Assembly: GCA_017506865.1 (NCBI GenBank)
Contig: JAFCMP010000090.1
Span: 496,001-560,000, forward strand
Direction of reading: 5' to 3'
From: Tribonema minus
Taxonomy: Eukaryota; Sar; Xanthophyceae; Tribonematales; Tribonemataceae
DNA: 64,000 nt
Each line of letters starts with the position of its first letter. Position 1 is the first letter of the stretch. The position numbers and the translations under genes are program-made. The notes beneath the pieces were generated by a model. It did not search any database. It was not told the DNA's origin and saw only the letters and a list, made by a program, of their open reading frames with translations. Of the stretch, positions 327 through 57,482 are shown in pieces.

Positions 327-3300
327 CCCGCGCGCGGCGGTCGTCAACGGGCAGCGACAGAACTGCGGACAGGTGAGCGCTGCACAAGGAAGCCAGAAGT
401 ATGCAATTATGCAAGCGAGCCCGGCCATGACCGGCACAAGCACTCTCTGCATTTGCGGTCCAAGCTGCTGCGGGCCAGTGGCTTTTGCCTGAACCGATGA
501 TCATGCCGTTGCTGGTTTCCAAAACACGTTCTATCGCCCCAGGTATCAGCAGACATTGCAGCAAAGATTTTACACGACTGGGTTCGCAGAGCCCCCGGGG
601 GTATACGGTGGTGCTGGTGGCGCAAATAGCACAATGCCATAAGGTGGAATACACACAACAGGTGTGGGTGAACACTGGCCAAAAATCTTTATGGTGCGTG
701 CTGCATGGCCTCACATGTACATACTGGGAGGGCAGAGCTGCTCAGAGCTGCCAGTGTCATTGCCTCTGACCTTGTATCCCATGTCGCACCCATTTACGTC
801 AAACTCGAAGACGGCGCATCCTGAGAGATCTGCCGGCTGTTGGCGTGTTGAGACAGCACATTGACAGTGGATGATTTAACGGTCACGGCAGAACCCGCCC
901 ACCGCTGTGACGGGCCCACCGCTGTGACGGCCGCAACGAACACGTGCCGAATCTGCACGTACGCCCGCTCATTCGCCGCCGCTGGCCGTGGCAGTGTCGC
1001 GCTCAGCGCAACAGGCTCCTGAGCCGCAAATGTGCCTCATACACACCGCTACGCCACCACACCGTCAACAAGCAGTGACTCAATCATACGGCATCGGGGG
1101 CGACCCGTCGCCGCCCCCCACCGCCCCCCCCAAGTCCCCCGTCTGACTGCGCCCTCCCCCCTCCGCCAAGCCCCCCGTCTAACCGCCCTCCCGTGCTCTC
1201 CTGCTCCTGTCGCGCGGCCGCAGCAGCGGTGGCGCGGCTGCGGAGGACGCGCGGCAGCGCGCGCGCCGCGTGCGCGAGGAGCGCGACCGCGAGCGGCAGC
1301 GACTGCGCTCGCTCATTGCCGCGGGGCGGCGTGAGCGCGCGGCGGCGGCGGAGGCGCGCAGCGGCAGCGGTGGCGGCGGCGGCGGCGGCGGCGGCGCGGA
1401 GTTGGTCGTTGTGGCGCCAGGTACGTGCTGCGCTGCTCGGCGCAGTGACGGAGAGGCGCGAGTTGAGAATGACATGTGATGACACGTACGGACGCTTGAG
1501 TGTACGCGCTGCGGCCACTTGCCGCGCCGCTGCTGCCGCCGTGTTGCATTGCTAATGGGCACTGACGTAGTCAGCCGGCCCAAGTCCTCTGTAAGGTTGC
1601 TGCATGCTGTGCGACGGTTTGTATGCTGCTGATGGCCAACATTGTCAGAGAAGGCGCAGTGCACTCGGCGCCGCGCATCCCGTGCCACGCAGCTCCCCCC
1701 CCCCCCCCCAAACCCCCCAATCGACAGCCATGCTCAGCCACACTGACTGTCATGAGCGCACAGGTGCGCAAGACTCAGCAACAACCCCTTCTCCCCCCCC
1801 CACCTCTCCCCCCCTTGCGGCGTGTAGCAGACGCCGCCCCGGCGCGCGCAACACCGCGCCGGCGCCCTCCGCCCGCTCGTCCCACGGGGGACAGCCCGTT
1901 CAGCGCCGGCTGGTCGCCGGACTTGCAAGCGGCGGCGGCAGCGGCTTGGAGCGCGCCGCGCGCTGTCGGCGGCGGCGACGGCGGCGGCAGCGGCAGCGCG
2001 GCGCGCGGGCGGGGGCGTGGCAATGCGGTTGAAGCTGAAGTTAATGGGGGCCACCACCTTCATCGAGAAGGTGAGTGTGCGCGCGGCGGCGGCGGCAGCG
2101 TGCTGTGGCGCATGGCACTTGGAGAAGGGTCTCATTGCCGCGCTGTGCACGCCAGGGAGCAGTGCTCCTGCATGAGGGGGGGGGGGCGCCGTAGCATGCC
2201 GTTGCTGCGCGGCGTGAGCGCTGCACGCAACTGCAGCAGGTGACGTGCCACACCGCACTGCTCACAACTATGAATGTGCAAACTGCTGACCACCGACGCC
2301 ACACGTAGACCACACCCGGCGCACGGGTAGCGGGCCTGTTGCCGCGAGCGGCGACCCTCTGGGCTCTGCTGCGCGCTCGGTGTTGCGGGCATGCGCCAAG
2401 CGACAGTTGCTGCACTCCGTCGCTGCTCATCCATGGCACCATTGAGACGACTCCCCCTCTGTCCACTGCTCTCCTCAGCCGTCTTTGCAATGCCTTCACG
2501 TTCTATGGCGTTGCGCCTGCTTGCCCGCGCCGCACGCGGCTCCGTGCCTTCACCCGCATGCGCGTTCCACCAGCGCGCGCGCGCTTTGACACGCGTCGCA
2601 CCCTCCCGATGCGCAGGCCGAGGCGCCGAGGCATGGGCGCAGAGACGCCCGCCCCCTCCCTACAGCATCCACACCCCCGCACCCGCGGGCTGGTACCCTG
2701 AGCCTGGCAGGGGGCGTCAAGATGCGGTCCGCGCTGGGGCTCCAGAGCGCACACCTGCAGTTTATGAGAGGGCCGCCAATGGGAGTGCCGTCGCTGGCTC
2801 AGAGGTGAGATTAGGGTGTCTGCGGTGCAAAATCTGGTCAGGTGAGGGGGAGCGGAGGGAGGGAGGGGATGCTCGCTGTCACCAGTACATTGTCAAGGCT
2901 GGTCAGTGAAGTCTTGGTCAGTGCGGCCGTGAATCTTGTCTGCTGCCATTGCTGGTATGCGGACTGACGGCAACTGAAACACACGCCAAACGCACAGTGC
3001 CTCTGCATCGTGCCTGCTGCACTGCGCGCCCGGCTCGGGCCGATGCCCAGTCTCCGCAGGGCGTGCCTCGTCAACCGACGCGCGTTCGCCTCTGGTGCTG
3101 CCCGCGCAATCGCGTACTGCCGCTGCGCTAACCCCGCCGCACCCTGCGTCTCACGCGCCGACCGCAGGCAATGTTGAAGATGAACTGTGGTGTTGAAGTT
3201 CCGGGCCCCGCCCCCGCGCTGGCGCGCACGCGCAGCGAGGGCATCTTGGACGAGCTCAGCCGCATGGAGCCCAGCGTCGTAGAGGAACTGCGCTCCGTCA

Positions 3301-6300
3301 TGACGGAGACGCGCAGCAGGTGGGTACGATAGGCACGTCGCGCATTGAAGTTGTGGTGTTGACGTTGAGGCATTGAAGTTGAGGGCCGCATGGAGCCCAG
3401 CGTCGTCAGGGAGCTGCGCTCCGTCGTGACGGAGACGCGCTGCAGGTGGGTACGCTAGGCACGTTGCGTGTTAACCTTGTAGCATTGAAGCTGTGGTGAC
3501 ACGGACACGGACCCAACATCATCGAGGAGCTGCGCTCCGTCACGACATAGACGCGCAGCTGGTGCGTCATCTCTTGAAGTTGTGTTGTCGCAGTGGCAGT
3601 GTCGTGCCTTTGTGATCCAAACTCAGATGCCCGCCATCAGGAACCGCCGTCAATCGCACGCCGTTCGTCACTACCTAGTGCTCTGACCGCGCGATGGTCA
3701 AATCGAGCTGACTGATGGCATGAACGCACGCGCCCGGCCCTCATGTCGCCCAATACCGATGAAGAGGCCATTTTTAAACACATCACGTGTCCTAATTGCG
3801 CGCGGTTGCGGTCGGATTGAGTCGACTGACGGTATTATGACAAAGCAAGCTCGACCCCCAACCTGGCTGCCGCCGCAACAACATCAAGACTGAGCTGGGG
3901 GGGCTGCTCGGAGGTAGCCCGTGCGACATGCCGACCGTGCGCAGTGGCAGGCTCTCGGCATTTGACGTGCATCAGACACGGCGCGTGTTCAAGCTTCAGG
4001 GGTTTGTGTTGTGAGGAAGAAGTACAGGGACTGGCATGCACCGCGTCTCGCACGTATGACACTGTGACATGCTTGTCCCAGCATGCGATGCGCTTGACGG
4101 TGTCGGCAAGCGTCAGATATGAGACATACCGTATGCACCAAGCGCCACGGCCACAAGCCCACAGTCTAGCGGCAGCGCGCTGAGCACCGAGTCGTTCAGG
4201 GGGCACGCGCCTTCACGTGTCCGCACAAATAGCTGAACCTGTGCTTGCGCTAGCATGCAATCATGCACACCTCGGCTCTGCCTCGCACTGCGCGCGCACA
4301 CGCGTGCGCATGTGTTTTCACGCCTGACGATGCCCGCGCTTCTGCTGCTCTTCTGCATGCGCGTCACCACATGCACGCCTCCACGCTTCCGGACAGAGCA
4401 TACCTACCCTCTGCGCCCTTAACCGTAACCCTCACCTCAAACCCTCACCGCGGACAATTGAGGCATGCTAAACACTTGCAACTGACAGTGTGCGTGCGTG
4501 GTCGTGTGTGTGCGCGTGCGCAGCGCGGACGAGAGCGAGGACGAGGTGCTGCTGCCCGCCGTGGACCTGCTGGGACAGGTACGTCACACGGTGACGCTCC
4601 CACGTGTCGGCTAGGAGGGTTAGGATAGGGCTAGGGTCTCCCACGTCCGTACGTGTCGGGTAGCAGGGTTAGGATAGGGCTAATGTCTCCCCGGGGTTGG
4701 GGGTAGGGTAAGGATGTCCTGTGGTGGACCTGCTGGGACAGGTGCGTTGTGGTGACGCTCCCACGTCCAAACCTGTCGGCTAGTAGGGTTAGGATAGGGT
4801 TAGGGTCAGGGTCGGGGTGAGCGTGAGGGTTCATTGCTAGCCTTACGACCGTCAACGCGGAGTTGCCGGGTTCGCGATGCCCCCGCCCCCGTGCGTGCAC
4901 GTCATCTAAGAGAAAGAGGCACTGATCAGGGTGAGGGTTAGAGTCAGGGTTTACTTGGGTTGGGCTTGGGGTTTGACAAGGGGTTCCGCTCATGTGCCGG
5001 TGTCAGCGCTCGCCTCGAAGACGCAGCCCGTGACTCGCCGGGTGCGCGTCGCTCCCTCGCCCATACAAAAGTGTCAGCAGTCAGGGTCAGGGGTTACAGT
5101 AAGGGTTTGGAATGTCTTGCCTTGTCTTGTCTCGTCTTGTGAAGCTGACGGTGCCTCGACCCCGCGCCTGCATGCCGAATGCCATTCTGTCGAACGGACA
5201 TGCGTGTGCGCGGTGTGCACTTGATGTGCACTTTGAAGGGGTAGGGTTAGATTATAGTTAGGGTTATGTAGGTAGGGGGTGGGGTTAGGGTGAGGGTCAG
5301 CTTGCGAGACGCCTTGCACGGCGTCCCCTAGCTGTGGGCCGCACCATCGGAGCGCTTGGCCTTTCGCCGCTGGCAGTCTCGCAAAGTCTCGCGGTCGCTT
5401 CCCGGCCGCCTGTGGCGACAGACGCGAGTGGCGAGAGGGGCTTTGCCCAACGCTACGGCAGCGTCTCTTGCTGTCGACGCTCCTTTGCCTGCAGCGGTTG
5501 GGTGCATCAGCGGTGCAGCGGTCTCACGTGTGCAGGCTACATGCGGCTTTGCAGATGGAGACTGAGATGCGTGGAGTGCGTCACGGACTAGAGCGACAGT
5601 GCTCACGCGCGAGCGCTCGAGGCAGTGTGGTCTCAGTGTCTCGTATGCACCACGGCAAGACGCGCACACTGTCTTTCCGGGCGTTCACATGGACAGTGAC
5701 AGATGCAGATGTAGGCATGTATGCATCAACACATGTGTCCATCGAGAGCCCTGCGGTCCGACACGCAGTTTCAGCAGCAGGTACGGGGCAGCAGTTGACA
5801 CGTAACCCTTGCCCTAATTAGACACCCCGCTGAGCCGGTCTGCATCACGCACCGCGCCTGCCATACGCACACTGCCCTTGGCGGGCGGCGCCTATGGAAA
5901 TACTTCAGAAGTAGCCTCATATAAACACATGTATTGGTGGAAGGCATTCAATTTGACGGCTAACCGCACCTTGTCACCTAGAACACTACGATCTTTTGAT
6001 TCGTTTCCATGAACATTGCGCACATCGTATGCCCCGCCTGCAATGCGTACGTCGCTTACAGCTGGCGGGCCCCGAGTTCAAGCTGCCGCGGGAAGGGGGC
6101 CGGCACAGCGGCGCTGCGGACGCCCGTCCACCTCATGTAACAGCTGAAACCGCTGAAACCACTCCGGCGGATCATGGCGCTGATAGCGACGGCGAGGTGC
6201 GTTGGGAATTGAACAACAGCATAAACGAAATTCCGGATTGTTCATAAATCACTTGTCGTATGGCAAAGTTGACATTGGATTGGTGTGCGTCCGCTGAGAG

Positions 6301-14811: not shown

Positions 14812-17800
14812 CTACCAGAGCCCCGCCCCGCCCCTGCCAGGCGGCGGCGCGCCCGCGCCCGCAAAGTGCGCCCACGCGTCCGCGGGCGCCACGTACGGCA
14901 TCATTTTGGCATCCTCTTCATCATCCTCATCGTCATAGTCATCATCGTCGTCGTCGTCGTCGTCGTCGCTGCCGCGCGCGCGCTCCTCTTCGCGCATCAG
15001 CCCGTCGTCCATGAGCCGAGAGCAGATCTCGCGCCCCCACTCCGTGCGCGCGCTCTGCACGTCGTACGGCTCGTAGTACCTGCGGCGGGCAGTGTAGAGT
15101 TAGGGCTTGGGTTAGACGCAGACGCGGCTATAGGGCCATCGCACGTCAAATCGGTCAGCGGCACCTTGCCGGGGCGTGCAGGCGACATTTGCCGCTTGTG
15201 TGAGCAGCGCACTGTGCACCAAATAGCGCTAGTAAGTCAACCACACATGGCTGATGCAACTCTGTAATTGGGTTAGGATCAGACGCAGACGCGGCGATGG
15301 CGTCATCGCACGTCATCGGTCGGCGGGATCTGGACGGGGGGTGCAAGCAACATTCGCCACTTGTGAGGGCAGCGCACTAAGCACATAGCAGCATTAGTAA
15401 CTACACCTACACATGGCTTATGCAAACCTGCAAACGCGCAACACGAGCCGCAAAGAACAGAAGCAGGAGCGCGCCTCGTCAGTCATTGAGCCGCCGGCGA
15501 GCATGCCGCGCGTCCTTCGTCGCCGCGCTCGCGCGCGGCGCTTCGCCCGTCAATGAATGCGCGCAACGCAGCGCCTCATGCGCATCGCGGCGGCGCTGAC
15601 CCCATGACAAACCTCAACACTTACACTATGCACCCTCAACTGTTAAGGTCACACAGCCCCCGTGCATGCTGCGTGGCGCGCATCCGCCTGACGACAAACC
15701 TCAACACTCACATCAACCTCAACAGTCACGGTCATGCAGCACGGCTCATCATGCGGCGGCACTGGCGTAGTGACATTCTCAACACTCAATTAAGATCGCT
15801 TTTAATTTCAACAGTGGCGCTCCGCGCAGCACGGCTCAGCGCACCTGTCCACGGGCCGCAGCGCGCCTGTCGCGGCGCGCGCGCGGTGCTCCACCCAGCT
15901 GAGCGTTGTGTCCGCGAGCTCGTCGCGCCACGCGCCGTCGCGCGCCATGGCCTCGCGCGCCGCGTACGCGCGCCACGTGTGGCCGACGTGCACCTGGCGT
16001 AGCCGCGCGCCGCACGCCGCCAGCACCAGGCTCAGCAGGGCGTAGTCGCTGATGCCCGCGCGGTGCGCCGTGCCTGGCGACGACGCGGAGGGGGGGAGGG
16101 GGGGAGCGGGGGGGGGGGGGGGGGGGGTCAGCAGTAAGTGACTGTAGCCGCTGTCGCCGGTGCGTTGCGGCGACGGCGGGCTGGTGGGAGGGGATGCAAA
16201 CGCGTCTAGCTGTTGACGTACCCTGTTCCACCGAGAGAGAGAGGGGCAGGGGGAAGGGGCAGTGCACCATGGTTACAGGCGCCGGCAGGTTGCGGTGACA
16301 GCGGCTGGGGGGCGGAGGCGGACGCTGCCTAGTCTTTAAGACACCCTGTTCTGTCGGGAGCGGAGTCGGGAAGTGATGCGTTGACCAGTACACGATGTAG
16401 CTACTACTGCCGTCGACAGGCTGCAGTGACAGACGCTAGGCATTCCCGATGCCGCCGCCGCCGCCGCCGCCGCCGAGTCCGCAGCGCAGTCACTGGCACG
16501 TTCCGCCGCCCTACTTCGCTGCGGCGGCGCCGAAATCACGCCTTCAGCCGGGGCGAGACGAGCACAAACAGGCGCCTGGCACTGACTGACACGTGGGCCC
16601 GGCCGGTGCTCTACGCTGCGCTCACCCCCCGCGCCGTCGCGCCCCGCGGCGCGCTCCGCGAAGAGTCAGCGGCGCAGCGCGAAGACATGACACGCTGCTG
16701 CGCGCCACCGCGGTGCGCACGCGGCGCAGTGAGCTGCGCAGAGCACAGCGTCTGGCAGCGCGGTCGTCGGCACCTCACGCCGCCCCGCCTCGCCGTAGCG
16801 GCGCCAAAACGACCCCTGGGATGAGCGCTGATTTGCCAAACGCAACAGACACATGGGCACCGGTCCTCCACGATCGTGCGCCCCCCCCCCCCCCGTTGCT
16901 CACTTACCCGAGTGGTGGCCTGGCGGTTTCTCCGCAAAGAGCCAGCGGCGCAGCGTCGCGACGCCGCGCGCGTCGAGCCCGCGCGCGTCGTGCGCCTCGA
17001 CGGCGCGCCACGCGTCGCGGTCGATGTGCTCCACGCCTGTCTCCGGCACGTCCTCGAAGGCGCACGAGAACAGCGGCGTCCACGTCGCCTTCTTGCCGTC
17101 GCGCGGCGCGCAGCGCACGGCGGCGGCGACGCCGAAGTCGACCCAGCTGCTGCGCGTGCGGTGGTGGTAGTCGAGCTTGATGTCCACGGAGCGTGGGAGG
17201 GCGTACGGGGACCAGAGCTGGGAGCGCACCTGCGGTGCGCGCGCGTGGTCCGGGGTGCACGCAGGGTTTACTAATTCGTTCCTTTGGCTGACTGATGCAT
17301 CGGCAGATGTGACTGGGGTATGGCGCCTGCCTGATGGGCTGACCAGGTTGCCTGTCGCGGGTGCACTGCCTGCTTGGTCTGACCCCAAGGATGCACATGC
17401 GCTTCTGACTGAGAGTTTTCAGCACAAAGTGCGTATGATGCCGACGCAGAGATGCCACTGCCAGGATGCGCAGCGCCGCCCTAGCGCTGACGCGGGAGCG
17501 CCCAGCACTGTCTCAGCCCAGGCGCCGCAGCCGCTTCCTGGAGTGCCGCTGCGCGGCGCGTGCGCCGTTGAATCAGTGCTCAGCACCGGCCATGTCGCAA
17601 ACGCAGCGCACTGCGCACGGCGTGTGCCTGCGGCCAACACGTGTTCAGCCCGTGCCAGAGCAGTGCTTAGCGCCGGCCGCAGCGCTCAAACCAGAGATAG
17701 CGCGTACACCCGCGGCACGCGTACGAGTACGAGTTTTTGACGCGCGTTTTAACTCGTGCCCGTGGCCGCGGAATAACCCGTACGCGTAACCTGTCGTGTG

Positions 17801-18969
17801 AGGCAACGAGTAAAACCTGCACTGGTGCACAGCTGATAACGCGCGGTACGAGCCTTAACGAGCCTTGACAGACGGTTTTCGCAAGGCAGCTTCAAGCGCC
17901 TTGAATTGTGATACCTGAAACAGGACATTGCTGCGAAGAATCTAATAGAACAGCTAAAAAACCCATTGAAACAGGCAAAAAAACTGTTCGACCAGCAATA
18001 ACCTGTTCGCGTACCTGTTGTCTCAGAGTACAGGTTAAACTCATACCCGTAGCCGCTGTCACACGTATTTCAATACTCGTACGCGTACTTGTCAAAAATT
18101 TTCTCGCGCTACGCGCGACCTGTTCGACAATGGCACTACGCGCCATCTCTGGCTCAAACACTGATTGCAGTTCTCAGCACCTGTCCACGCAGCTGTCTGA
18201 CCTCTGGCCTGAAGACTGCGCCTTCAGGCAGCGCAGAGATTTGCCGCCGGCCGCGCCGATTGACCGGGCGTTGCAAGCGGCGCTCACCAAAATCACGCAC
18301 CGCAGTGCTGCTGAGCACTGCTGCTGAGCACTGCGGTCCGCTCTCCTCTCGCCGCGAGCAGTACTCTACAGGCCAGTACCGAGCTTCGAACGCAGCGCTC
18401 GGAACTACTTGGGCCGTCAGCGGCAGGTGTGCAGCATCATCGCTGCCCTTGTGCCCAGGCACCGCAGCGCGCGCGTTGTTTGCATCGCCGCTGTGCGCTC
18501 AGCAGCTCCATCTCACTCACAAGAAAGGCTATCGTAAGACGCAGCAAAAGATACAGTGCAAGTGTGTTTCCTGACTGAAACTCAGTCGATGGCAAGCCGT
18601 GCGGAGCGCCGCGACCGGCACCGCACCCGCCGCCGCCACCACCGCCGCGCCGCGCCGCGCGACACGCAATTTCTCTCGCCTCCAGCGCGTGCAGCTGCCC
18701 CTCCGCGTCGCCGTCCTCCCACTCCGGGTCCGCGCTCACGCGCAGGCCCGCCAGCAGCGCGGCGGCGAGCGCGGGGTCGGCGCCCGCGTCAGCGCTCAGC
18801 GCCGCCTGCGCGGCCGCGCGCATGTCGCGCTCGAGCGCGTGCCCGTACAGGTCCGCCTCGCTGTACTCGTCGTCCTCCTCGGCGTCGGCGGCGGCGCGCG
18901 CGGCCTCGGCGTCCGCCGCCGCGCCGCGCTCCTTCAGGTAGAGCTTCCAGTCGCCGGCGCAGGAGATCT
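14812..18969 (-). CDS. Multi-exon acidic protein of unknown function (3' part resolved, 5' end not)
   Basis: Read on the minus strand. Exons 17229-16908, 16073-15845 and 15079-14812 join in frame with good sites (donor GTAAGT at 16907, acceptors after C-rich tracts) and end at a TAG at 14812-14814. An upstream exon, about 18969-18627, is strongly coding (DWKLYLKERG, EEDDEYSEADLYGHALERD) but needs one unresolved exon to join in phase, and the start codon was not found. The protein has an Ala/Glu-rich part, a compact middle (SVDIKLDYHHRTRSSWVDFG, GISDYALLSLVLAACG, WVEHRARAATG) and a tail with about ten Asp in a row near the C-terminus. GC3 is very high. I do not recognise a family. It is transcribed away from the tRNA-modification gene at 20078. 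Confidence 0.6.
15090..15430. repeat. Intronic tandem duplication, ~168-bp unit
   Basis: Two consecutive copies, about 15095-15265 and 15266-15425, share GACGCAGACGCGGC, CATCGCACGTCA, GGTCAGCGG or GGTCGGCGG, ACATTTGCC or ACATTCGCC, GCAGCGCACT and ACACATGGCT in the same order. They lie in the intron between exons 16073-15845 and 15079-14812 of the minus-strand gene, directly upstream of the latter's acceptor. Confidence 0.75.
16108..16128 (-). other. Homopolymer C polypyrimidine tract before an acceptor (minus strand)
   Basis: The plus strand shows a run of about 19 G, preceded by GGGGGAGGGGGGGAG. On the coding minus strand this is a near-pure C tract about 35-55 nt upstream of the acceptor of exon 16073-15845, where a polypyrimidine tract is expected. 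Confidence 0.7.
17700..18135. repeat. Block of imperfect short direct and inverted words, lower GC
   Basis: Contains repeated variants of ACGAGT, ACCTGTTCG, AACCCGTACGCG, ACTCGTACGCGTAC and GAAACAGG. Two diverged direct segments stand out (about 17745-17800 and 18027-18090), both running from TTAAACTC or TTAACTCG through CCCGTAGCC or CCCGTGGCC to CGTACGCGTA and TTGTC or CTGTC. It lies inside an intron or gap of the minus-strand acidic-protein gene. No coding capacity is apparent. Confidence 0.45.
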
Positions 18970-22391: not shown

Positions 22392-22422
<31 letters not shown>

Positions 22423-34088: not shown

Positions 34089-35936
34089 TCAGGTGCTGCC
34101 GAAGCGGTACGCGCGCACCGTGTCGACGACGTCCTCGCACGACACGCCGCGCGTCTGGCGGCACAGCGTGGGCGCCCAGTCGTCGTCGCCGCCCTCCGCG
34201 GCGAGGCGCGCCGACGCCTTGGCGCCGCAGCGCTGCACGTCGATGACCCTGCGCGCAGCAGTGTTGGGGGGGGGAGGGAAGGGGGGTCAGGTCAGTACGT
34301 GCTGTACTTGGCAGGAGGGGTGGCCCTGAGCACAGCAGTATTGCTTCCCGGGTGGGGTGGCGGGGGGCGCATGAGGTCAGTGCACGCTGTACATGAGATC
34401 GATGACCCTGCGTGCAGCATTGTTGACGGGGTGGGGTGGGCGCATGGGCCAAGGCGTGCTGTATTCGAGAGTCAGAACTAGCAACAGTGTTGCGCGGTCA
34501 ATACGTTGTGAGCAGCATCTCACGGGGGAGGGGGGGGAGGGGACGTTGCGCGTGAAGTCAATGGGGTAAGGGGGGGGGAGTGGCGACAGCGACTGAGAGC
34601 GACGTGCATGCCGGACCACAAAGACAACAAGTGGCAGACACACAACGCCTGCATGCGGCGTGCACTACGTCCGTGTGCAGGCCGTGCATGATGGGCACCA
34701 TATGTAGCACAGCGACGCTCAGGCGAACACATTATGCTTCTGCCAGGTACGGTTGCAGCAAAAACCTCTTGGGCGGCCAGGCCCAACACGAGGAGATCAC
34801 GTTCAAAAGTGCTTCCACTTTGGCAACATCGCGTGGGGCAGGCGCTTCAACCTGCAGCAACGCTCGACCTGCCCCACAATAAGCGGCCTGCTCTCGCAGT
34901 TCTCTAGCGCACTCCACCTTCTCACAGGCGCGTTTTAGGTACCCAAGTCCTCTCGCTCCCAGTTCAGTGGCAGCCCATCAAAGACACACCAACAGCAGCA
35001 GCGGCGGCGGCAATGAACGCACCTGGGGTGCGCGCGCATGGCAGCGACCAGCGCCTCACGCGCGCCCGCCGCACACAGGCGCGCGCGATTCTCCTCCACC
35101 GCCGCGAGGCCCGCAATCGCGTGCAGCGCGGACTGGCGGAAGGCCAGCGTCGGGGGGCCCGTCCTCAGCGAGCGGATGACGGGCTCGCAGACCCCCACCG
35201 CACCCAGCCTGTCGGCGCGGCAGAGAACCGGTTCCAAAGGGGAGAGGGAGGGGGGGGGGGGTCTCAGGTGCAAGCAGCGGAGGAGCTGGTTTCGTTGGCA
35301 GAAGACGGGTTCCAATTGGTTCATTGGCAGAGAACGGGTTCCACTGGAGGGGGGAGGGAGGTGGCGGGGGTTCTCAGGCGTGAGCAGCGAAAGGGTTGTT
35401 TCATTGCGAGCTGAAGGCAGCATAAGCGAATCTGCGCATACGCACGTGCTCGATGGCAGCGCTCACTAGTACGGCGGCCGTGATTAAGAGCCAGCAGCGC
35501 CGCATCAGCGTCAATATTGTAGCGCAGTAACACCGCTCCATCGCCACAGAGGCTTGACACTGCCGATCGTGGCAACAACACCTGGCGTAGCAGCTGCAAA
35601 CACGCACGCACGCACGCACGCCAGCATCATTGGCAGCCCCTGCAGCAGCGACGGCGCTCTCGAAACGCGGCGCTTGGGCGCCTGTGCCCCTTTCAGGATT
35701 AGGAGTAGGGTTATCCCTCTTAGGATTAGGTTACACCCTCACCTGCGGCTGTTGTCGGCGCTGTAGGCGAGCGTCGCGACGGCGTGCACGCCCTCCTGCT
35801 GCACGTCAGCGTGCGCGGGGAACGCCAGCAGCGCGCGCGCGGCGGCCTCGCACGCGCCCGCGCCGCCCAGCCGCGCCTGAGCACTGCTGCAGCCCAGGTT
35901 GGCCACTGCCTGTTTGGCGTCGACACGGCAGAGGCA

Positions 35937-35970
<34 letters not shown>

Positions 35971-38886: not shown

Positions 38887-39027
38887 TGAGATTGCCAAAG
38901 AAGCTGTCGAGTCTGGGTGCGCCGGAGCAGCAGTTCGTTGATTACATGTAGGGTCAGCAGCACGGACGATGTGTCGCCACAACCACCCACATGCACCCTA
39001 CCACACATCCATATTCATACTGCAGTC

Positions 39028-42180: not shown

Positions 42181-42224
42181 TGTCTATACTCTCTCATGAT
42201 ACACTGCTGCGTCTGCAACTACTA

Positions 42225-47085: not shown

Positions 47086-50000
47086 TCAGTCGCTGCCGCT
47101 GCTCAAGTGCGCGTACTTGGCGCGCGCGCCGCGGCCGCGCCGCACGCCGTGCCAGAAGTAGCGCGCGCGCGCCCTGAAGCCCCAGCTCGCGGTGACGGTG
47201 CGCGTGCCGGGCAGCGTTGCGTGCGCTGCTGCTGCTGCTGCGGCGGCGGCGGCGGCGGGGTGTTCGCACGCGGCAGCAGCCTTGGCGCTCAGTCGCTGTA
47301 GCTCGCTGTCGGCAGCGGCGGTTGGCGCCCAGGTGTCGGCGGCGGGCGCGTAGAGGGGGCTGCGCGGCGGCGGTGAGATTGCGGGGAGGGAGTGGTGTTG
47401 GCGACAGGCGTGTACGCGTCGAATTTTACGTATGGGTGTGTGCAACACCTATACGCATGTGATATGTGCATACACATTGAAGGTGTTTAATACTTCTGAA
47501 GTACATGTAGAGGTTACATTGTGTGTAGGGTTAGGATTAGGGTTAGGATTACATTTAGGGTTACGGCTAGGGCTAAGGTTAGGGTTGAGGCTAGGGTCGG
47601 GCTGGTCCACAGCGCTCGACAGCTGTCCCGCAGCGCATGGAGCGGTCACTGTTATCACCAGCACCACATTGCGCCTCGGCAGACATGCATCAAAGAGGAC
47701 GAGGCATGTGAGATCATGCAGTACGCATTAAGTTGAAGTGTGCCAGTCACCTCGCCGAGTCTCATGCGCACGCAGCTGGCACAGCATTCTGGACTGCAAA
47801 AGCTCCTGCCCACCAACAGAGCACCAGCAAAATGTCAAATGAGCCACTGCAGTGACAGCGCTACAGCTGCCAGCACACCGCGCGCCAAAGCCATCAGCAC
47901 ACTGCCTCGCGGTACTGCGACGCGCCCTAATGCACACCTGAGCTCATCCCCCTCGTCGTCATCATCATCAGCGGCATCCGACGATGCGGCAGCGGCGCTG
48001 GCGCAGGTGCTGCCGCCGTAGCCGCGCGCGGCGGCGTCGGCGAGTTCGACCGTCGCCAGCGCCGCGAGAGCGCGCAGTCCGCCCTCCTGGATCACGGCGT
48101 CGGCTGTGTGGTGGTCGAGCGCCGCGGTGACGGCGTCGAAGGCGCCGGCCATGCTCAGAATCGCCTGCACAGCGTAGTAAGGAGCGATGACGTTTGTGAG
48201 CGTTGGTAGCGTGTGGCGCGTGGGGTGACGGTGAGCGTTGCGTGTGCGCGCGGGCATGCGTATTGTGCGTCCAGGTGTTATCCTTGCGGTGCGATGCACG
48301 GATCTGGGTACGACGCAGGTACCTGCACGACACAGTATTCTACGGGCACCGAGCTGCGTCGACACCACAGCGTGCGCACGGGCACGTTCACGGACACGCG
48401 AGCCACGCACGGTGCCGCCACCGTGCCGCAATACCTCCACACAATCGACAGCGCCGGTTGCGCGGCCGCCTCCGTTCGTGAGAGCACGAGGCGGCAAGTA
48501 TCGTGTCTGCTATATGAGACAGATTTGCAAAGGCTTGCCAAGACTGTGAAGGCGCGGCCATCGTTCACCGCGTCACTTGTCGCACTGTCTGCCAGCGGCA
48601 CCACCTTTGAACTCAGTGGCAGGTTTGGGTCACAAGTCAGATTCTGCGAGCCCGCGAACCCTGACCTCGTTGCGTGACGCGCTCTACGCCAGCGCGGCAC
48701 GTCACCATGCACAATGCCTTCACAGCACTGCCTTTGAAGCCTTCGGTCATCAGCATCAAAATTTATTCGCAAATCTAACAAACAGACTCTACGCGCCCTA
48801 GCCTCGTCGCTCAATGCGCGTTGCACCGCCGCGGCGACACGCGCCCACTTCACACGACGCCATTCACACCACTCTTCCACACCAGCATCAAAACCACGCT
48901 AGAGTCAGAGTCAGAGTCAGAGTCAGAGTTACACGCACCCGCACCTCGTCGCGCAGCGCGAGCAGCGCGGCCGCGGCGACGCTGCAACGTCAAGTCATGA
49001 GTCAGAGCCAGAGTCAAGTCACGCACGCACCCGCGCCTCATCGCTCAGCGCGAGCTGCGCCACCGCGGCAACGCCGCAGCGCTGTATCTCCGCGCTGCCG
49101 GGGTAGCCGCACAGCGTCAGAACAACCGCTTCGCACGCGCCGGCGGCTGCGAGCGGCGCGCGCGCTGTGGCAGCGCTCGCCAGCGCGGCGATGGCACGCA
49201 CGCCGTGCAGGCGGACGTCCGCGGCGGTCGGCGCCGCGCGCATGGCGCCGACGACGGCCGCGCAGCCGCCGTCGCGCGCGAGGCGCGCCTGCATGCGTCG
49301 GCGGGGTGCGGATCGGGGAGTATGTAGGTGAGCAGGGCAGAGGGGGGGGGGTTCGGGTAATCAAGACAAAACGGTAGAACTGTGCAAAGCGGACGCACAC
49401 GGCCACTGCGCAGCTGCCGTCGTGCGCGAGGCGCGCCTGCATGCGGCGGTGGGGGAGAAAGGGTTGGTAGGTGAGCGGAGCAGAGGGGGAGGTACTTGTG
49501 GGTGGACGGGGGGTGTGGGGCTAGGGGTGGGGGCTCAACTCATACAAAAGGGTACATAGGTAACGTGCGAAGCGGGCGCACACTACGACTGCACAGACCC
49601 CAGGGCGCATGCAATCTGCGCGTTGCGCGCCATGTGTGTGTGTTTTTGGTGGGGGCAGGGGTATGCAGGTGAGCAGAATCGAGAAGCGGTGGGGTGCGCA
49701 TGTGTGGGGGGGTGAGCATATATGGGAGAGAGAGGGGGGGCAAGATGGAGCAAAGCAAGCCGTAAGTAGGCATGCATGCAGAGGCGCGCTTGACGCGCTC
49801 CCAGTCGCAGCTAGTGCGATGCGAGCAGCAGGTAGAGCCCGTGAAGCAATGCGGCATGGCGGCATACATGCAGGGTGCCAACTGCGCCTGGCGCATAACC
49901 TCGACGTACGCACACACACTGCAGCGAGTCACAAACGCTGCGCTGCACATGCATGGGTCCGCACAGGGTCCCAACGCTTGCCATCGCGGCGGCGGCGGCG

Positions 50001-52239
50001 GCTGCGGCGGCGGCGGCGGCAGCACCGGCATCGGCAGCAGCGGCGGCAGCGGCGGCATCGGCGGCGGCAATGTGCATCAACTGCCTTCTTGCACCGTATC
50101 TTACCTTGTTGGAGTCGTTGGCGGCGAGCGCGGCGACGGCGCGCACGCCGAGGCGCTGCGCGTCCGCGTCGTCGGGGCGCGCACGCAGCAGCGCGGCGAC
50201 GGCGGCGCAGGCGCCCGCGTGGCCGAGGCGCGCGCACGCGGTGGCGTCCGCGGCGAGCTCTATGATGGCCTGCAGCGCCCAGAAGAGGGCGTCGGGGCTC
50301 GCTTGGACCTTGCAGATGGCGGCAGTGACGGCCTCGCACGCGCCGCGCTGGCCGAGCCGGGCTGTGCAGGACATGGAGGGGGGGGGGGGGGGGAGGTGAG
50401 GGGTGGAAAGAGGGGGGGGGGAAGAAGGCGCGGGGGCCGCGACTTGCACCAACAGGTTTTGTGAAAAAGCAGTGTTGACGCAATGAATGGCGCTGGCAGG
50501 TGCGTGGTGCAAATCAGATGTGCATGTGTGACATCAGTAGCGATCGTACGCGGGCAGCTGCAGGCCCAGCTGGCAGCAGCAGCAGCAGCAGCGCTCACCT
50601 CGGTTGAACCTGTCGGCGGCGAGGTGCGCGACGGCGTACGCGCCGCGCTCCTGCACGGCGGCATCGCGCGGGTGCAGCCGCATCGCCGCGACCACCAGCT
50701 CGCACAGGCGCACCGTGCCGAGGCGCGGGCGCCACGTGCCGAAGCCGCGGCCGCAGCCGCCGCGCGCGCCGCCGCCGCCGCCGCCGCCGCCGGTGCCGGG
50801 GCTGAAGAGCCCGCCGAGGCACGCAAAGTACAGGTCGGCGCCTTCGAGGCCGCCGCCGCTGCTGCTGCTGCCGCCGCTGCTGCCGCCGCCGTCGGCGTCG
50901 CACACGGCAAGGTGCGCGGCGGCGTTGAGGCCCGCGCACAGCAGCGGCGCGTTGGTGAGGCCGCGGCGCATGGCGGCGGCGACGAGCGCGCGCGCGCCGG
51001 CGGCGTCGAGCGCGGCTGCGTTGGCGGCGTCGTCGCGCGCGAGGTCCGCGACCGCGCGCAGCGCCCACGTCTGGAGCTCGGCGTTGGCGGGGTGGAGGCG
51101 CAGCGCGCGCGCGGCCGCCTCGCACGCGCCGACGCTGCCCAGCGGCGCCTGAGGGGGGGCGCGGCGGCGATGACGACGTAGCAGGATGTGCGGGGGGGGG
51201 GGGGGGGGGGGGGGGGTGAGTGCAATGCGGTTCTTCTTGAGGAGAGTGGGAGTCATCGACGGCGGGAGTGAGTTGGTGTTCCGCTTGCGCCGCGCTGCGC
51301 GCTGCGGCGTGCATGGCAGCGTTGGTGCAGGTCCATTGCGACCCGGCGCATCAGAACCTGGCGGCGTCTATCTAGCTAAAGGCAGATGCAGTCCTGCCGG
51401 CATTCAGTTGCAGGTCAAATGCTCTGTGCACGAAGTGGCACAAGGCTTGCAGTAGCTCCAGTGTGTTGGATGGATGCGCTTGCTCGCCTCCGATATACCT
51501 CAAAAGAGATGAGAACATTTGATGCCGCTCCCACAAAAGCGGGCACGCTGCTCCAAAATGAAATCAAACTAGAAAGCGTTGACATTCGGGCGACAACTAT
51601 TCTCTGACAAGTACATGAACAAAAGTGTTGTCCTCCAGAAGAATCAGCGAAAATAAGAAGAGAGAACGACCAGCACACGGCGCAGCGGCCTGCACCCACC
51701 TGCGCTCCCGGGTGCTTTGCCAGCAGCGCTATGGCAGCGGCTCCGCTGCTCTGGATGTCGCCACGCCCGGGGTGGGTTCTCATGGCCGCTATGACGGCGT
51801 CGCCAATGATGGCCAGCGGCGATCTGCATCCGTCGATGTCGATGTCCGGGTGCAAGACTTCCGCCAGGTGCACGATCGCCAGGCAGCCGGACTGCTGCAG
51901 GTCGGCGTGACGCGGAAAGGCTCGGAGGGCCGCAACTACTAGCTCATGCGCGTTCGCCTCCAGCAGCATGAGTTTGGCCGGGAGGTTCTTGTAGGCAAGG
52001 CCCGCAACCGCCCTCAGGGCCCAGAGCTGCACCTCCTGGCTGAATGGATGCGAGCGCAGTGCAGTTCCCACTGCGCTGCAAGCGCCCGCCAGGCCAAGCT
52101 TAGCTGCTGTGGAGGTGTCCGCTGCCAGAACCGCGATCGTTTTGGTGCCCCAAGCCTGTGTCTCTACGCTTGAGGGCGAGGCTTGCATCAGGCTCACCAA
52201 CCTGGCCTCCGAGAACGGGCCATCGTGACTGATGCACAT
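47086..52239 (-). CDS. Armadillo-repeat protein ARM-C, six exons (701 aa)
   Basis: Minus-strand exons 52239-51700, 51148-50599, 50361-50105, 49288-49031, 48164-47938 and 47359-47086 join with all phases matching (2106 nt). Repeats are clear: AGACSAVGTALRSHP, VQLWALRAVAGLAYKN, LQTWALRAVADLARDD, VGACEAAARALRLHP, RGACEAVTAAICKV, AGACAAVAALLRARP, GGCAAVVGAMRAAP and AGACEAVVLTLCGYP. Exon 2 has a Gly/Ser-rich interruption (GGGSSGGSSSS); exon 5 ends in an acidic DDDDDEGDEL. The last exon leaves the ARM fold (TWAPTAAADSELQRLSAKAA, an Ala run, SWGFRARARYFWHGV). If the last intron is retained, translation ends instead at 47835. The start is the first ATG; the frame is open upstream to a TTG at 52263. 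No membrane or signal segment; a protein-binding scaffold of unknown partner. Divergent from the SLC25 gene. Confidence 0.85.
47520..47600. repeat. TTAGGG-like tract in the last ARM-C intron
   Basis: TAGGGTTAGGATTAGGGT, TTAGGATTACATTTAGGG and AAGGTTAGGGTTGAGG follow one another on the plus strand, a degenerate telomere-type run inside the intron 47937-47360. Confidence 0.75.
48660..49005 (-). repeat. Echoes of the ARM-C exon 49288-49031 end
   Basis: The exon end (plus strand CGCGCCTCATCGCTCAGCGC, GAGCTGCGCCACCGCGGC) recurs at 48943-48985 (CACCTCGTCGCGCAGCGCGA, GCGGCCGCGGCGACG) and 48800-48842 (GCCTCGTCGCTCAATGCGCG, CACCGCCGCGGCGAC), with a weak fourth copy near 48664. A GAGTCA microsatellite (48902-48930) lies between them. 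Confidence 0.82.
49300..49680 (-). repeat. Two echoes of the ARM-C exon 49288-49031 start
   Basis: The exon start with acceptor (plus strand GAGGCGCGCCTGCATGCGTC) recurs at 49428-49447 (GAGGCGCGCCTGCATGCGGC) and weakly at 49596-49630 (GGGCGCATGC...GCGCGCCATG). AGGTGAGCAG, AGCGGACGCACAC and AGCGGGCGCACAC words show units of about 150-190 bp. Confidence 0.85.
50376..50395 (-). other. Poly-C polypyrimidine tract before an ARM-C acceptor
   Basis: A run of about 16 G on the plus strand is C on the coding strand, lying about 15-30 nt upstream of the acceptor of exon 50361-50105. A similar run of about 25 (51192-51216) lies about 45-70 nt before exon 51148-50599. Confidence 0.75.
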
Positions 52240-52957: not shown

Positions 52958-55900
52958 ATGGGAGACCATGAGCGGAGATCGGTGTACGCCCGGCCTCTTT
53001 GTGCTGTTTTGGCCGGATGCACGGCGGAGCTGGCCACGGCGCCTATCGAAATTACGAAAGTACGGCTGCAGCTCTTGCCAGGTAAAGTCAATGTTTCCCA
53101 CACGACTAGTTTCCGCTCAAACACGACGAGTTACCGAACTTGTTGCAACACCAGTAGGCAGTTCTGAGGACTGCGAGGCTTCCATTCGCCTCGTTGCTGC
53201 ATCTGTTCTGCGAAGCGTGCGTATTCTATACGTTGGAGCACGTTTACATGCAGTATCTGACAAGTGCATGAGTAATGGTTTTTGCAGTTGATGCATGATC
53301 GGGAGTTCAGGAGGCGCCAGCCTTCAACAACACTTCGTTTTGCTGCATTAGACCAGTCGTGAATGCTAGGCAATTTTCTACTGCAGTAAAATTCGTGCAG
53401 TAGTGAGCTGGGCTGCTGTTGGCATTGATGTACTGCTTGCGAGGACAGCTTTGGCCCCATACCAGCCCCGGACCCTCGGTTGAGGCACCAACTGTCGCTT
53501 GTGCCATGCGTCAGGCCGCGCCGCCGCCACACTCGCCCTACAATACAATGCTCGCGCCCCCCCTGCGCTCCTTCGCAGCACCTGTTGATAGCATATGCAT
53601 GAGCCTCATTCCTGCATCACACCGCTACACGCGCACTCGATCAGGCGCACCGCCCGTCACCACCGTCGTGGCCTCCATCTACAACGGCGCGGGGGTGGGC
53701 GGGTTCTGGCAGGGCATCCGGCCCTCGCTCGCGCGCCAGGTCCTGTGCTGCGGCGCGCGATTCGCCGCGTACGACCCGTTGAAAAAGCGCATCTGCGCGG
53801 CGACGCCGGCGACAGCAGCGGCGGCGGCGCGCGGCGGCGCGGGCGCGAATGCGCCGCCGGCGCTGTGGCAGATGTGCCTCGCGGGCGGCGGCGCCGGCGC
53901 CATCATGGGCGTGGTGCGTAGCAGCGCTCAGTAATGATGGCGTCGTGCTGCGCACTTGCAGGCGCCCTCTGCGATGAGAGGTCCCAAGTGTGTCACACGG
54001 TGCGTGTGTTACTCTGAGATGCGGCATGTAGCTGGCACTGCCTGGGCCGTCGTGTGTGTGGTGTGCAGCGGCGCACGTGTTGCTGATGCTCAGCGCCTCG
54101 CCGCACGCAGGCGTACGCTCGTCCAGCTGCGCAGCGCGGCGGCACAATCGCCGCGCCGGCGCACGTTGTCTGAGTTCAGTACGGCGCTGCTGCCGAGCTG
54201 CAACCGAGTGCAGCATACATACCTTTGCTGCGCACAAGTCCACGAGCGCACAGGCCGCCGGTGCTTCCTCTCACGCGCGCCATCGCCACACCATCCGCGC
54301 ATCGCCGCCGCTGCGCAGGTCGGGTGCCCCGCGGACCTGCTGAAGACGCGCGCGCAGTCGGGGCTGGGCGCGCAGCAGCGCTCCGGCGCGCGCGCGCAAG
54401 GCCTGTACGCGTCGCTGCGCGCCATCGTGCAGCAGGAGGGCGTGCTGGCGCTGTGGCGCGGCGTCGTGCCCATGGTGCAGCGCAGCGCCTTCGTCAGCAT
54501 GGTGAGCGCTGCTGCACGTGCGGCGTTTGCAGAAAGAGCAGTCGGGGCGTGTGCGTTGTACGGCTCCGCAGGCACGCGCGTGCGCGGTGCCGCCGCGTCG
54601 CTGATGGATGCTGCCCTGACAATGCGTCGCACGTGCTACGTCGTGGTAGTGCCTGGGACTCTGGTGCTGTGTGCATCCTGCGGTGGAATGGGGGTCTTGT
54701 ATCATCACATGTACCTCACCTTTAGCATACCTGCGCAGCACACCTGCGCACTGTACCTGGCCACTGTCCCTGCCCACTACGCTCGCTCACCAATATCCAT
54801 GCGTACACCCGCCTACAATACCTGCCTATCGCACGTATGTACCCACTCTCACAGGCGAAGCTGAGCAACACGTATACCCGCTTATCACATGTATCTACCC
54901 TCACCGGCGGAGCTGGCCATGTATGGCTCCGCCAAGTATTACGATCTTTTGATTCGTTTCCATTACCATCTAGCATACCCGTACCTACAGTCACAGGCGG
55001 AGCAGGTCACAGGCGGCGCTGACCATGTATGACACTGCAAAGTGTTACCATCTAGCATACCCACGTGCTGCTGTACCTACGTACCCCTGCAGGCGGAGCT
55101 CGCTGTGTACGACTCCGCCAAGCACTGGCTCGCCGACACCCCCCTGGTGCCGCCCGGCGCGCCAACGCACGCCGCCGCGTCCATAGCGGCGGGGTTCGCG
55201 GCCGCGGTGGTCGGCACCCCCATAGATCTCGCAAAGGTGAGACAACTTGCCTGAAAGTGGACCCTTGGCGTTCACAGTCCAGTTCCAAATCCAAAGAACC
55301 CAAGAACTCGAGTCACAGAGTGCTCAAGCCCCCCTGGATTTGTTTCTGAAACTCGGCTAGTGGGTCCGGTTACGCGCGGTCTGCCAAACCAAGTCGCCTG
55401 GTACTCGAGTCGCCTAGTACTCGAGTCTTAGAAGTAATTGAGTCACTCTGAGCACGCGGGCCTGGTCACATGCAGTCTGACCACAGCGCGCGCGCTTGCT
55501 AAGCCAGTGAGTGTATTCGGTGAAGAGTGCGCTGACAACATCTTCAACTCACATGCGCACGCATGTGTACGGCATTTGCACCCTACGAGGCGCGTCACAC
55601 TTGCTGCACGCCGTGCGTGGCGGCTGCTCATGGCACGAGTGGACGACACGCCGCGCCGGCGGCATGGCAGCATTGGCGCCTGCTGCTGCTGACACGTGGG
55701 ATCGCTGCACGCACCTGACTGAACAGCGACGTCACACCACGTCAAAAGTGATGGCGTGCTGCAGTACACAAAAGGTGCTCGCGTGCGCGCCCCAAACAAC
55801 CGCTCGCGCACGCGCGCAAACACACGCAAACACTGCTGAGCAACGCGGTGATGCTGATTTTCGCCTTGTGCGCACGTGTGCCTGTCGCGCAGAACCGCCT

Positions 55901-57482
55901 CATGGTGGACGGCATGCAGGGCGAGGGCCTGCGCCCGCAGTACACAGGCATGCTCGACGTGCTCCGCAAGGTACGTAGGTGCCCCCGTTCATTACAGTCA
56001 TGTATGTATACACGCACATGGCTTGGACTGTAGCCAAAAGCGCATCTGGTATTGCACGCAGTACACGGGCATGCTCGACGTGCTCCGCAAGGTACGTAGG
56101 TACCCCCGTTCATCACAGGCATGTATGTACGCACGCACATGGACTGTATACGATGTGCGTATTTGCGTACATGTGGCCAGGGTTCAGGCGCGCGCAGTGC
56201 TCAGTGATGTAGACGTGCGTACCGTAGGCATGCATGTACACGCATGAACTGTGTACACACGCGTACACATGGTGAGAGTGATGTGCGCTGCTTGCCGCGG
56301 GCATCTGGCGCGCGACAGGGTCCAGCGACAGAGGGGCAGGAGGTTGGTGTGGTAGTGCACGCGTGCTGTCGCACGCGTCTTGATAACCACGGTGCCCTCT
56401 ACCTGGAACGTGCAGTCAGAACGCAGCGCGGAGTCAGAGTATGATGGAGTGGACGTGTGCTCAGAGCTCAGCGCGCGTCTCGCATCACACAGCATTTGCG
56501 CCCTCTACTGCGGATGCCTGCCCCGTTGGAACTGACGCCAGCCCTATGGCACGGCATGCCGTGAGATGTGCCGTCAAACTCTGTACATCAGTCTGTGCAT
56601 CTTTGTCACGTGAGCGTTGCATCTCTCACCGCGCTGCGCCTCTCTCATGTGCCTCCGCCTCTTGCAGAGCGCACAACAGGACGGCCTGCGCAGCCTGTAC
56701 AAGGGCTTCCTGCCAACGTGGATGCGCATTGGCCCTTGGGCCATTGTCATGTGAGTGTCCGTCTGCTTGGTCAAGCCGAGGGTTGGGGATACGGTTAATT
56801 AGGCCGGTGGCTACAGTAGGGCTTAGGGCCACGGTCAAGGTTTTGTGTGGGTTGGGTAGTGTTGAGCACTGGGGCGGCTTTTGCTCCTGCTCGTCTGGCG
56901 AGCACTGTTGCGTAGAGGCGTGTGAATATTGCCACATCGAATGCATTTCGATGGCTCGAGGCACCTGCGCGTATTGCCGTTGATAGCAAGTGAGCCGTGG
57001 GCGCTGCAGCCGAGTGGCCACACAGGGCACTGCTTTGCGATCTGTGCCACTGCAGCGCTTCAGCAAGGTGCCTGTGTCACGTTTTCATGTCATGATTGTC
57101 GATTGACGGCTTGTGCATGTGTAGTGCCGCAACAAGCGTGCGCTTGAGGGCTGCTTTTCATTTCATCAAAGTTCAAGCGGTGACATTGCTGGCAGGTGAC
57201 CTTGACCAAGCATGAGCATGTACTGTACTACTGTGCATCTTAAAGCACCGCCGTGTTGCTGCACAGTTTGCGGTGTTGATCACATGTCAGTACAGGCGTA
57301 CACACCACAGAACACAGGCACATGGGCACATCCGTTCACCAGCGCTCCCCCCCCTCTCCCCTGTGCACAGGTTCATGACGTACGAGCAGCTGATGCTCAG
57401 CGTGGACGCGCTCAGCGAACGCGCCGAACACACCAAGACGAGCATCAGGCTGAGCACTGACTCTCTCAGCACGCAGGCCTGA
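52958..57482 (+). CDS. Mitochondrial carrier (SLC25 family), UCP/dicarboxylate-carrier-like
   Basis: Seven exons, 52958-53081, 53645-53913, 54319-54501, 55093-55236, 55893-55970, 56668-56750 and 57371-57482, give 330 aa with matching phases. The three family signatures are present: PIEITKVRLQL (P29, E31, K34), CPADLLKTRAQ (P135, D137, K140) and TPIDLAK (235-240), each ending the odd-numbered helix of one of three repeats. Other typical pieces are FWQGIRPSLARQ, LWRGVVPMVQRSAF and LYKGFLPTWMRIGPW with FMTYEQL at the end. Length and order fit SLC25 carriers, six-helix proteins of the inner mitochondrial membrane that exchange metabolites or protons. The WMRIGPW...TYEQL end and PIEITKVRLQL resemble uncoupling-protein, dicarboxylate and oxoglutarate carriers, but the substrate cannot be told. 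A short Ala/Gly insert lies after KKRICAATP. Divergent from ARM-C. Confidence 0.92.
54850..55040 (+). repeat. Tandem echoes of SLC25 exon 4 start
   Basis: The exon start CAG|GCGGAGCTCGCTGTGTA, coding AELAVYDSAK, recurs as GCGGAGCTGGCCATGTATGG (54907-54926, ELAMYGSAK) and GGCGGCGCTGACCATGTATG (55011-55030, MYDTAK). Weaker copies are at about 54850 and 54985. TACCATCTAGCATACCC recurs between copies. Confidence 0.85.
54938..54975 (+). repeat. Dispersed intron repeat, copy 3 (short)
   Basis: TTACGATCTTTTGATTCGTT TCCATTACC matches the core of copy 1 (CTACGATCTTTTGATTCGTT TCCATGAAC at 5987-6015). It is embedded in the exon-4 echo array of the carrier gene. Confidence 0.7.
56055..56145 (+). repeat. 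Near-identical echo of SLC25 exon 5 end
   Basis: CGCAGTACACGGGCATGCTC GACGTGCTCCGCAAG plus donor GTACGTAGGT (56058-56101) repeats 55937-55980 with one base change. The following intron text (CCCCGTTCAT, CATGTATGTA, ACGCACATGG) is also repeated. It keeps an intact donor, so it may be used as an alternative or cryptic site. Confidence 0.92.

What the first reader, a model, noticed from the sequence alone, without database searches (positions are those of the whole stretch)
3236..56145. Introns built from decayed tandem copies of exon borders ('exon echoes') in at least five genes
Seen in the NEK-like gene, the tRNA methylthiotransferase gene, ARM-A, ARM-C and the SLC25 gene: the end or start of an exon, with its splice site and some intron, is repeated one to four times in the adjoining intron. 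Copies differ in age, from near-identical (56058) to barely visible (24085). Tandem genomic duplication is an accepted route for creating introns. Here the same process appears to act repeatedly and across the genome, lengthening introns and leaving datable fossils. I know of no description at this density.
Basis: partly seen in the sequence, partly recalled or inferred. Interest (0 to 1): 0.9.

Follow-up and report, generated by a model that had tools for sequence, protein, structure and literature searches.

The report
Intron ends copied from exon borders
In this stretch of a eukaryotic genome, short pieces of DNA spanning the edge of an exon have been copied repeatedly into the neighbouring intron, where the copies slowly decay, so that these introns seem to have grown inward from their ends.

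Summary
With exon-only probes (50 bases at each of 62 exon borders in six gene models), 14 of 62 recur in their own adjoining intron at z>5, against 1 of 1,860 non-adjacent border/intron pairs. Controls gave nothing: inverted 0 of 62, the exon's other intron 0 of 48, mid-exon 0 of 34. Copied units are mostly about 60-160 bp, straddle the splice junction, are direct, and range from near-identical to barely visible.

The copies decay like non-coding DNA: changed codons are 25 synonymous, 60 non-synonymous, 1 stop, as random substitution predicts. In two genes, homologous proteins run across the echo-bearing junctions with at most a one-residue gap, so the outer splice sites are presumably used. 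Existing introns are lengthened; none shows creation by duplication. Tandem duplication is a known process. Unusual here are the density (about one border in four) and the focus: recurrent windows are 182/1073 in introns but 16/796 in other non-coding DNA, and within introns they cluster within about 250 bp of exons. Retention or detection bias could explain part of this. No genome, RNA or eukaryotic relative was available.

The parts
   Evidence: gene model; echo z 19.4
3385..3496 (+). echo of donor border 3319: exon part 55/61, intron part 38/51, GT kept, offset 126
3506..3567 (+). second echo of donor border 3319: exon part 46/56, GT kept
4724..4807 (+). echo of donor border 4578: exon part 18/18, intron part 52/58
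15103..15433 (-). intron-only tandem pair (167 bp apart, 77%) upstream of the acceptor of M1 exon 14815-15079
21882..21949 (+). echo of acceptor border 22076 (MTT): exon part 31/32, intron part 30/35, AG kept
22892..22976 (+). echo of acceptor border 23095 (MTT): exon part 62/70, AG kept
24109..24907 (+). array with echoes of acceptor border 24908 (MTT) at 24266-24324 (exon 14/15), 24330-24565 (52/65) and 24650-24725 (37/37)
26078..26298 (+). intron-only tandem repeat (period 76-79) upstream of acceptor 26321
26533..26819 (+). two echoes of donor border 26459 (MTT): exon parts 40/42 and 30/36
27078..27248 (+). echo of acceptor border 27508 (MTT): exon part 44/49, intron part 85/106
27781..27863 (+). 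echo of donor border 27683 (MTT): exon part 68/77, GT changed to GC
28016..28121 (+). second echo of donor border 27683: exon part 41/45, intron part 55/60
28653..28725 (+). echo of acceptor border 28855 (MTT): exon part 33/39
36011..36154 (-). tandem copy of 35868-36009 at acceptor border 35876 (ARM-A); only 9 exon bases; AG changed to GG
36433..36568 (-). two echoes of donor border 36619 (ARM-A): exon parts 32/36 and 36/42
48903..48989 (-). echo of donor border 49023 (ARM-C; exact donor position uncertain): exon part 48/57
49389..49492 (-). echo of acceptor border 49288 (ARM-C): exon part 39/42, intron part 46/56
54896..55053 (+). old, decayed copy of SLC25 acceptor border 55093 (41-column match at 54896-54936), itself repeated at 55007-55053
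56054..56272 (+). echoes of donor border 55970 (SLC25): first exon 36/38, intron 46/51; second (56175-56272) much decayed
20396..29970 (+). MTT gene: MiaB-type tRNA methylthiotransferase, nine modelled exons
53645..57479 (+). SLC25 mitochondrial carrier gene, six modelled exons
34092..37592 (-). ARM-A gene, five exons used in the tests (Pfam ARM matches below cut-off)
47117..52039 (-). ARM-C gene, six exons used in the tests
14815..18969 (-). M1, unnamed four-exon gene model; no Pfam hit; weak echo at donor 16908

Best explanation
These are short local direct duplications of DNA that straddle splice junctions, fixed and then left to decay inside introns. A segment of mostly 60-160 bp, covering 9-77 aligned bases of an exon's edge, the splice site and adjoining intron, is duplicated head to tail or with a spacer. 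The inner copy falls inside the intron; the outermost donor and acceptor still give the right protein, so the extra copy is spliced out and evolves freely. Repetition builds introns inward from both ends. Shown: the copies, their direct orientation, their same-side position, decay without coding constraint and concentration near exon borders in this window. Inferred: that the outer sites are the ones spliced, that the events are DNA-level duplications, and that most echoes are functionless.
For: Same-side direct 14/62 against inverted 0/62, cross-side 0/48, mid-exon 0/34. Recurring windows fall 25%, 2%, 0% going into the exon and from 27% to about 10% going into the intron. Some units are head to tail with offset about equal to unit length (126, 115, 143, 90, 167 bp). 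Echo changes: 25 synonymous, 60 non-synonymous, 1 stop, random expectation 26/72/2%; exon-part mismatch 105/908 against intron-part 193/1162, as expected if only the exon original is constrained (several echoes share one border, so cells are not independent). Offsets are multiples of three in 7 of 21, the chance share. The MTT and SLC25 proteins joined at the outer sites align to solved homologues with at most a one-residue gap at the echo-bearing junctions. Recurring windows: introns 182/1073, other non-coding 16/796.
Against: Some copies are spaced, not head to tail: a block at about 27625-27689 recurs nearly intact at about 27800-27864 with unrelated flanks, which needs a later deletion or a templated insertion. 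18 of 21 echoes keep their splice dinucleotide, so many intact decoy sites sit in the introns and I cannot show that they are ignored. My gene finder itself called seven exons inside echoes, in five of six models; I removed them by hand, and only for MTT and SLC25 does homology back that choice. No transcript data.
Confidence: 0.78

Rival explanations
1. Duplication is uniform over non-coding DNA, and the border focus is a retention and detection effect. Exon copies are protected from change and deletion, so pairs that include an exon edge stay recognisable longer, and deletions near exons are not tolerated, so copies there persist.
For: Exon parts diverge less than intron parts. In a simulation with detection bias, border pairs are detected at 0.62 against 0.41 for intron pairs (score threshold set by me to approximate 45 bits). 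With a two-fold bias put on the rotation expectation, 13 of 19 clusters is not significant (P about 0.10; with a 1.5-fold bias 0.026).
Against: Simulated border share 0.33 against 13 of 19 observed, P 0.0015. Pure intron windows, which gain nothing from exon conservation, are also richer near borders: 120/540 within 250 bp, 61/533 beyond, rotation P 0.001. The unassigned non-coding DNA has one local repeat cluster of at least 45 bits against 19 in gene spans (P 0.0003).
Confidence: 0.4
2. A splicing- or transcription-linked process aims breaks or template switches at splice junctions (for example R-loops or nucleosome edges at exon ends; recalled candidates, not tested), so the duplications are targeted.
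For: Border peak in the recurrence profile, near absence from other non-coding DNA, 13 of 19 clusters straddling a border against 6.5 expected by rotation, P 0.0023.
Against: Part of the excess is explained by detection bias; breakpoints were not tested systematically for microhomology or motifs; no mechanism demonstrated; one 64-kb window, with MTT supplying 81 of the 182 recurring intron windows.
Confidence: 0.25
3. Rogers-type intron gain: the introns themselves arose by tandem duplication of exon segments carrying AGGT.
For: Local tandem duplication has acted in the same genes.
Against: The 21 counted echoes, at 14 borders, carry splice junction and intron sequence along with the exon part. 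The acceptor echoes lie towards the acceptor end of the intron, not at its start, and the donor and acceptor arrays of intron 26460-27507 show no match to each other at 40 bits or more.
Confidence: 0.05
4. The echoes are functional alternative exons or splice sites.
For: 18 of 21 keep GT or AG; the gene finder reads seven of them as exons; the SLC25 55093 copy still reads like the exon start.
Against: Decay blind to codons, and offsets with no preference for multiples of three; homologous proteins lack the extra residues at these junctions. Per-base identities of 88% and 83% would by themselves keep about 15-16 of 21 dinucleotides (my arithmetic).
Confidence: 0.07

Closest known systems
[quoted passage not shown] potato RdRp case, PMC4974935, passages read)
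   Same: Tandem duplication across an intron/exon structure; in potato the copied unit included the 3' side of an intron and the start of the exon
   Different: There a new intron was gained; here existing introns are lengthened and the copies stay inside them, at many borders in one window
Internal gene duplication (Gao and Lynch 2009; not held; known only as cited in PMC4974935 and PMC3443670)
   Same: Duplications of segments within genes
   Different: As cited, that work concerns intron creation and duplicated segments with whole introns; here partial exon edges become intron filler
Stwintronisation by donor duplication (Lipomyces, PMC7138796, passages read)
   Same: Duplication of a donor site inside an existing intron
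   Different: There 4-7 nt duplications are proposed to give nested functional introns; here units are mostly 60-160 bp and no nested splicing is shown
Introner elements (Amoebophrya PMC7789003, passages; Pelagomonas PMC9481584, passages)
   Same: Repeated sequence in introns of protists
   Different: Introners are dispersed families; here copies are local to their own exon border

Membership tests
Local tandem (direct) duplication | second copy in direct orientation near the first | tested here: met
   14/62 direct, 0/62 inverted; head-to-tail pairs
Local tandem (direct) duplication | copies contiguous, no spacer | tested here: inconclusive
   met for some units (115, 126, 143, 167 bp); others have spacers (about 27625-27689 to 27800-27864)
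Rogers-type intron gain by tandem duplication | new intron runs from GT of one exonic copy to AG of the next | tested here: not met
   the 21 counted echoes at 14 borders include junction and intron sequence
Rogers-type intron gain by tandem duplication | intron absent in relatives | not testable with these tools
   no related eukaryotic loci found
Introner element | family of similar introns in unrelated genes | tested here: not met
   1 pair of different introns with at least 45 bits, an 85-bp match, among 31 introns
Tandem (alternative) exon duplication | whole exon copied with both splice sites | tested here: not met
   mid-exon probes 0/34 (exons of at least 150 bp), cross-side 0/48 (exons of at least 100 bp)
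Tandem (alternative) exon duplication | copy under coding constraint | tested here: not met
   25 syn/60 nonsyn/1 stop, random-like
Stwintron | two consecutive splicing reactions with a nested intron | not testable with these tools
   no RNA data

The most novel reading that the evidence does not exclude
In this lineage duplication is aimed at splice junctions: a splicing- or transcription-linked process keeps copying exon borders into introns, so introns grow from their ends, and about a quarter of exon borders carry a datable copy, while other non-coding DNA is largely spared.
Probability: 0.25. Interest if true: 0.85.

Novelty: new variant of a known kind. Interest (0 to 1): 0.6.

Why it matters
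Intron growth is usually put down to transposons (general knowledge, recalled). Here intron sequence can be traced to the exon next door, with copies of graded age, which would let one date intron growth and measure how fast unused splice sites decay. It also poses a splicing question: many introns would hold near-perfect decoy sites beside the true ones. In practice such echoes mislead gene prediction: my own gene finder called seven exons inside echoes, in five of six models.

Tried and rejected
Whole-genome tests: no genome is held. The organism was not identified. Rfam at gathering threshold: 0 matches; tRNAs: 0 (ARAGORN with the bacterial setting). Introner family and Rogers-type intron gain were rejected. 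Chance and low complexity were rejected. The 'targeting' claim was weakened by allowing for detection bias.

Rows dropped: from the gene-finder output I left out, before the tests, seven predicted exons that lie inside echoes (3410-3445, 24499-24516, 28686-28719, 36462-36476, 48939-48981, 49401-49436, 56062-56091) and others that I judged doubtful or on the wrong strand (among them 1224-1420, 1952-2070, 25403-25584, 28238-28272, ARM-A predictions above 37592, ARM-C predictions below 47117, and predictions opposite MTT, M1 and SLC25); 21099-21155 was merged into one exon. From, 21 of 23 aligned pairs entered (M1 16908 and SLC25 55093 left out). In one search, 5 exon-exon protein repeats were left out (30 of 35 pairs used). 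The 'unassigned' DNA (20,230 bp) is what my models left out of gene spans, minus the retroelement ORF and 40001-44699; it may hold unrecognised genes. The control scan cut it into 800-bp blocks and found 3/713; the fairer one found 16/796, 12 of them in one stretch holding one repeat pair.
Full report
What was checked. The window is a GC-rich eukaryotic stretch (59-67% G+C in 4-kb blocks) with intron-rich genes. No genome is held, so all work is on these 64 kb. I trained a small gene finder on the window itself. Together they have 31 introns, 27,964 bp, and 62 exon borders facing an intron.

Is it more than chance? Comparing the window with itself, 37 matches of at least 50 bits lie within 1 kb and 10 lie further apart; 20 shuffled windows gave none at that score. 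Nine of the 37 are in ARM-coding or retroelement sequence and are not echoes. To avoid counting intron-intron repeats, I used exon sequence alone: the 50 bases at each border, searched in each intron and scored against 200 dinucleotide shuffles. In the adjoining intron 15 of 62 exceed z 4 and 14 exceed z 5; in other introns of the same gene 1 of 288 exceeds z 5; in introns of other genes 0 of 1,572 exceed z 5 and 5 exceed z 4. A repeat with new shuffles again gave 14 of 62, and three controls gave nothing: inverted 0 of 62, the exon's other intron 0 of 48, mid-exon 0 of 34.

Anatomy. Twenty-three pairs were aligned base by base; 21 of them, at 14 borders, were used for counting. Units straddle the junction with 9-77 aligned exon bases plus intron sequence. 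Some are head to tail (115, 126, 143 and 90 bp; the intron-only pair at 15103 with 167 bp); others are spaced, such as the block at about 27625-27689 that recurs at about 27800-27864 with unrelated flanks. Arrays occur at both ends of one intron: in 26460-27507 the donor side and the acceptor side each have their own. Counting only bases inside matches of 45 bits or more, 15.5% of all intron sequence lies in local duplications; 60-64% does in three introns, and 14 of 31 introns have none.

Decay. Exon parts of echoes differ from the true exon at 105 of 908 bases, intron parts at 193 of 1,162 (P 0.001); gap openings are rarer in exon parts (17 against 58, P 0.0002). Mismatches by codon position are 28/305, 36/302, 41/301 (P 0.23), and changed codons are 25 synonymous, 60 non-synonymous and 1 stop, close to random. 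Several echoes share a border, so these P values are optimistic. The copies thus decay without coding constraint while the original is held. Splice dinucleotides survive in 18 of 21; per-base identity alone would keep about 15-16, so there is no sign that decoy sites are purged.

Which copy is used? I have no RNA. The MTT protein joined at the outermost sites aligns to the solved MiaB without a gap at junctions 22257/23095, 23280/24908 and 26459/27508 and with a one-residue gap near 21297/22076 and 27683/28855; the SLC25 protein has no gap at 55970/56668. The echoes are therefore inferred to be spliced out in these two genes. For ARM-A, ARM-C and the + gene this was not tested by homology, and my gene finder did read seven echoes as extra exons, which I removed.

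Is the process aimed at exon borders? Of 19 unsupervised duplication clusters in the gene spans, 13 have a copy straddling an exon border; rotating the annotation gives 6.5 on average (P 0.0023), and constrained placement 5.2 (0 of 1,000 reach 13). Since exon originals are preserved, border pairs stay visible longer: a simulation gives a detection chance of 0.62 against 0.41 and an expected border share of 0.33 (P 0.0015). If a full two-fold bias is put on the rotation expectation, P is only 0.10. Two tests that do not lean on exon conservation still point to borders: intron windows that recur elsewhere in the same intron are 120/540 within 250 bp of an exon and 61/533 beyond (rotation P 0.001), and recurring windows are 182/1073 in introns but 16/796 in unassigned non-coding DNA. 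The signal is uneven: MTT gives 81 of the 182, and four introns of the + gene give none. Retention near exons could still produce both. I therefore hold targeting at about one in four.

What it is not. It is not an introner family: among 31 introns only one pair of different introns shares a match of at least 45 bits. It does not look like whole-exon duplication: mid-exon probes found nothing. It is not Rogers-type intron creation at the 14 aligned borders, since the copies already contain intron and junction. Assembly error is unlikely, as the matches range from about 97% to 70% identity and have different spacers, but reads were not available.

Literature. Seen as passages: PMC4974935 (potato RdRp: new intron from duplication of an intron/exon structure, plus an 83-bp duplication inside an intron), PMC3443670 (review of mechanisms), PMC7138796 (4-7 nt donor duplications in Lipomyces), PMC7789003 and PMC9481584; search listings only for the rest. 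Gao and Lynch 2009 is not held and was seen only as cited. Nine searches listed no paper whose title or abstract start describes exon borders repeatedly copied into their own introns at this density. Searches listed 15 of 226 and 20 of 25 hits, two searches had no hits, and the library omits most subscription journals, so this is weak evidence.

Verdict. Confirmed observation; a known kind of event in an unusual concentration and position; a new variant, with a testable possibility that splice junctions are duplication hot spots.

Noticed in passing
58877-62968 (+): Open frame of 1,363 codons with a reverse transcriptase domain (PF00078, E 1.4e-10); probably a retrotransposon ORF.
   Followed up: partly
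5936-6020 and 23346-23430: An 85-bp sequence, 82% identical, shared by introns of two different genes; the only such pair at 45 bits or more among 31 introns.
   Followed up: no
13523-13682 and 14029-14196: A 160-bp direct repeat about 506 bp apart (75%) outside the gene models, the only local repeat of at least 45 bits in the unassigned DNA.
   Followed up: partly
16090, 22391, 35940, 51192, 58273, 63372: Runs of 25-38 G or C, some imperfect.
   Followed up: no
20396-29970: Against prokaryote genomes the methylthiotransferase matches at 49-56%; the best 80 records are mostly Bacteroidetes-group. No eukaryotic relatives were searchable, so origin is open.
   Followed up: no
introns such as 4600-4860, 26480-26760: Introns with GGGTTAGG-like motifs on the sense strand.
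   Followed up: no
44016-44558 (+): A further ARM-like coding stretch on the + strand between ARM-A and ARM-C (Pfam ARM matches below cut-off).
   Followed up: no
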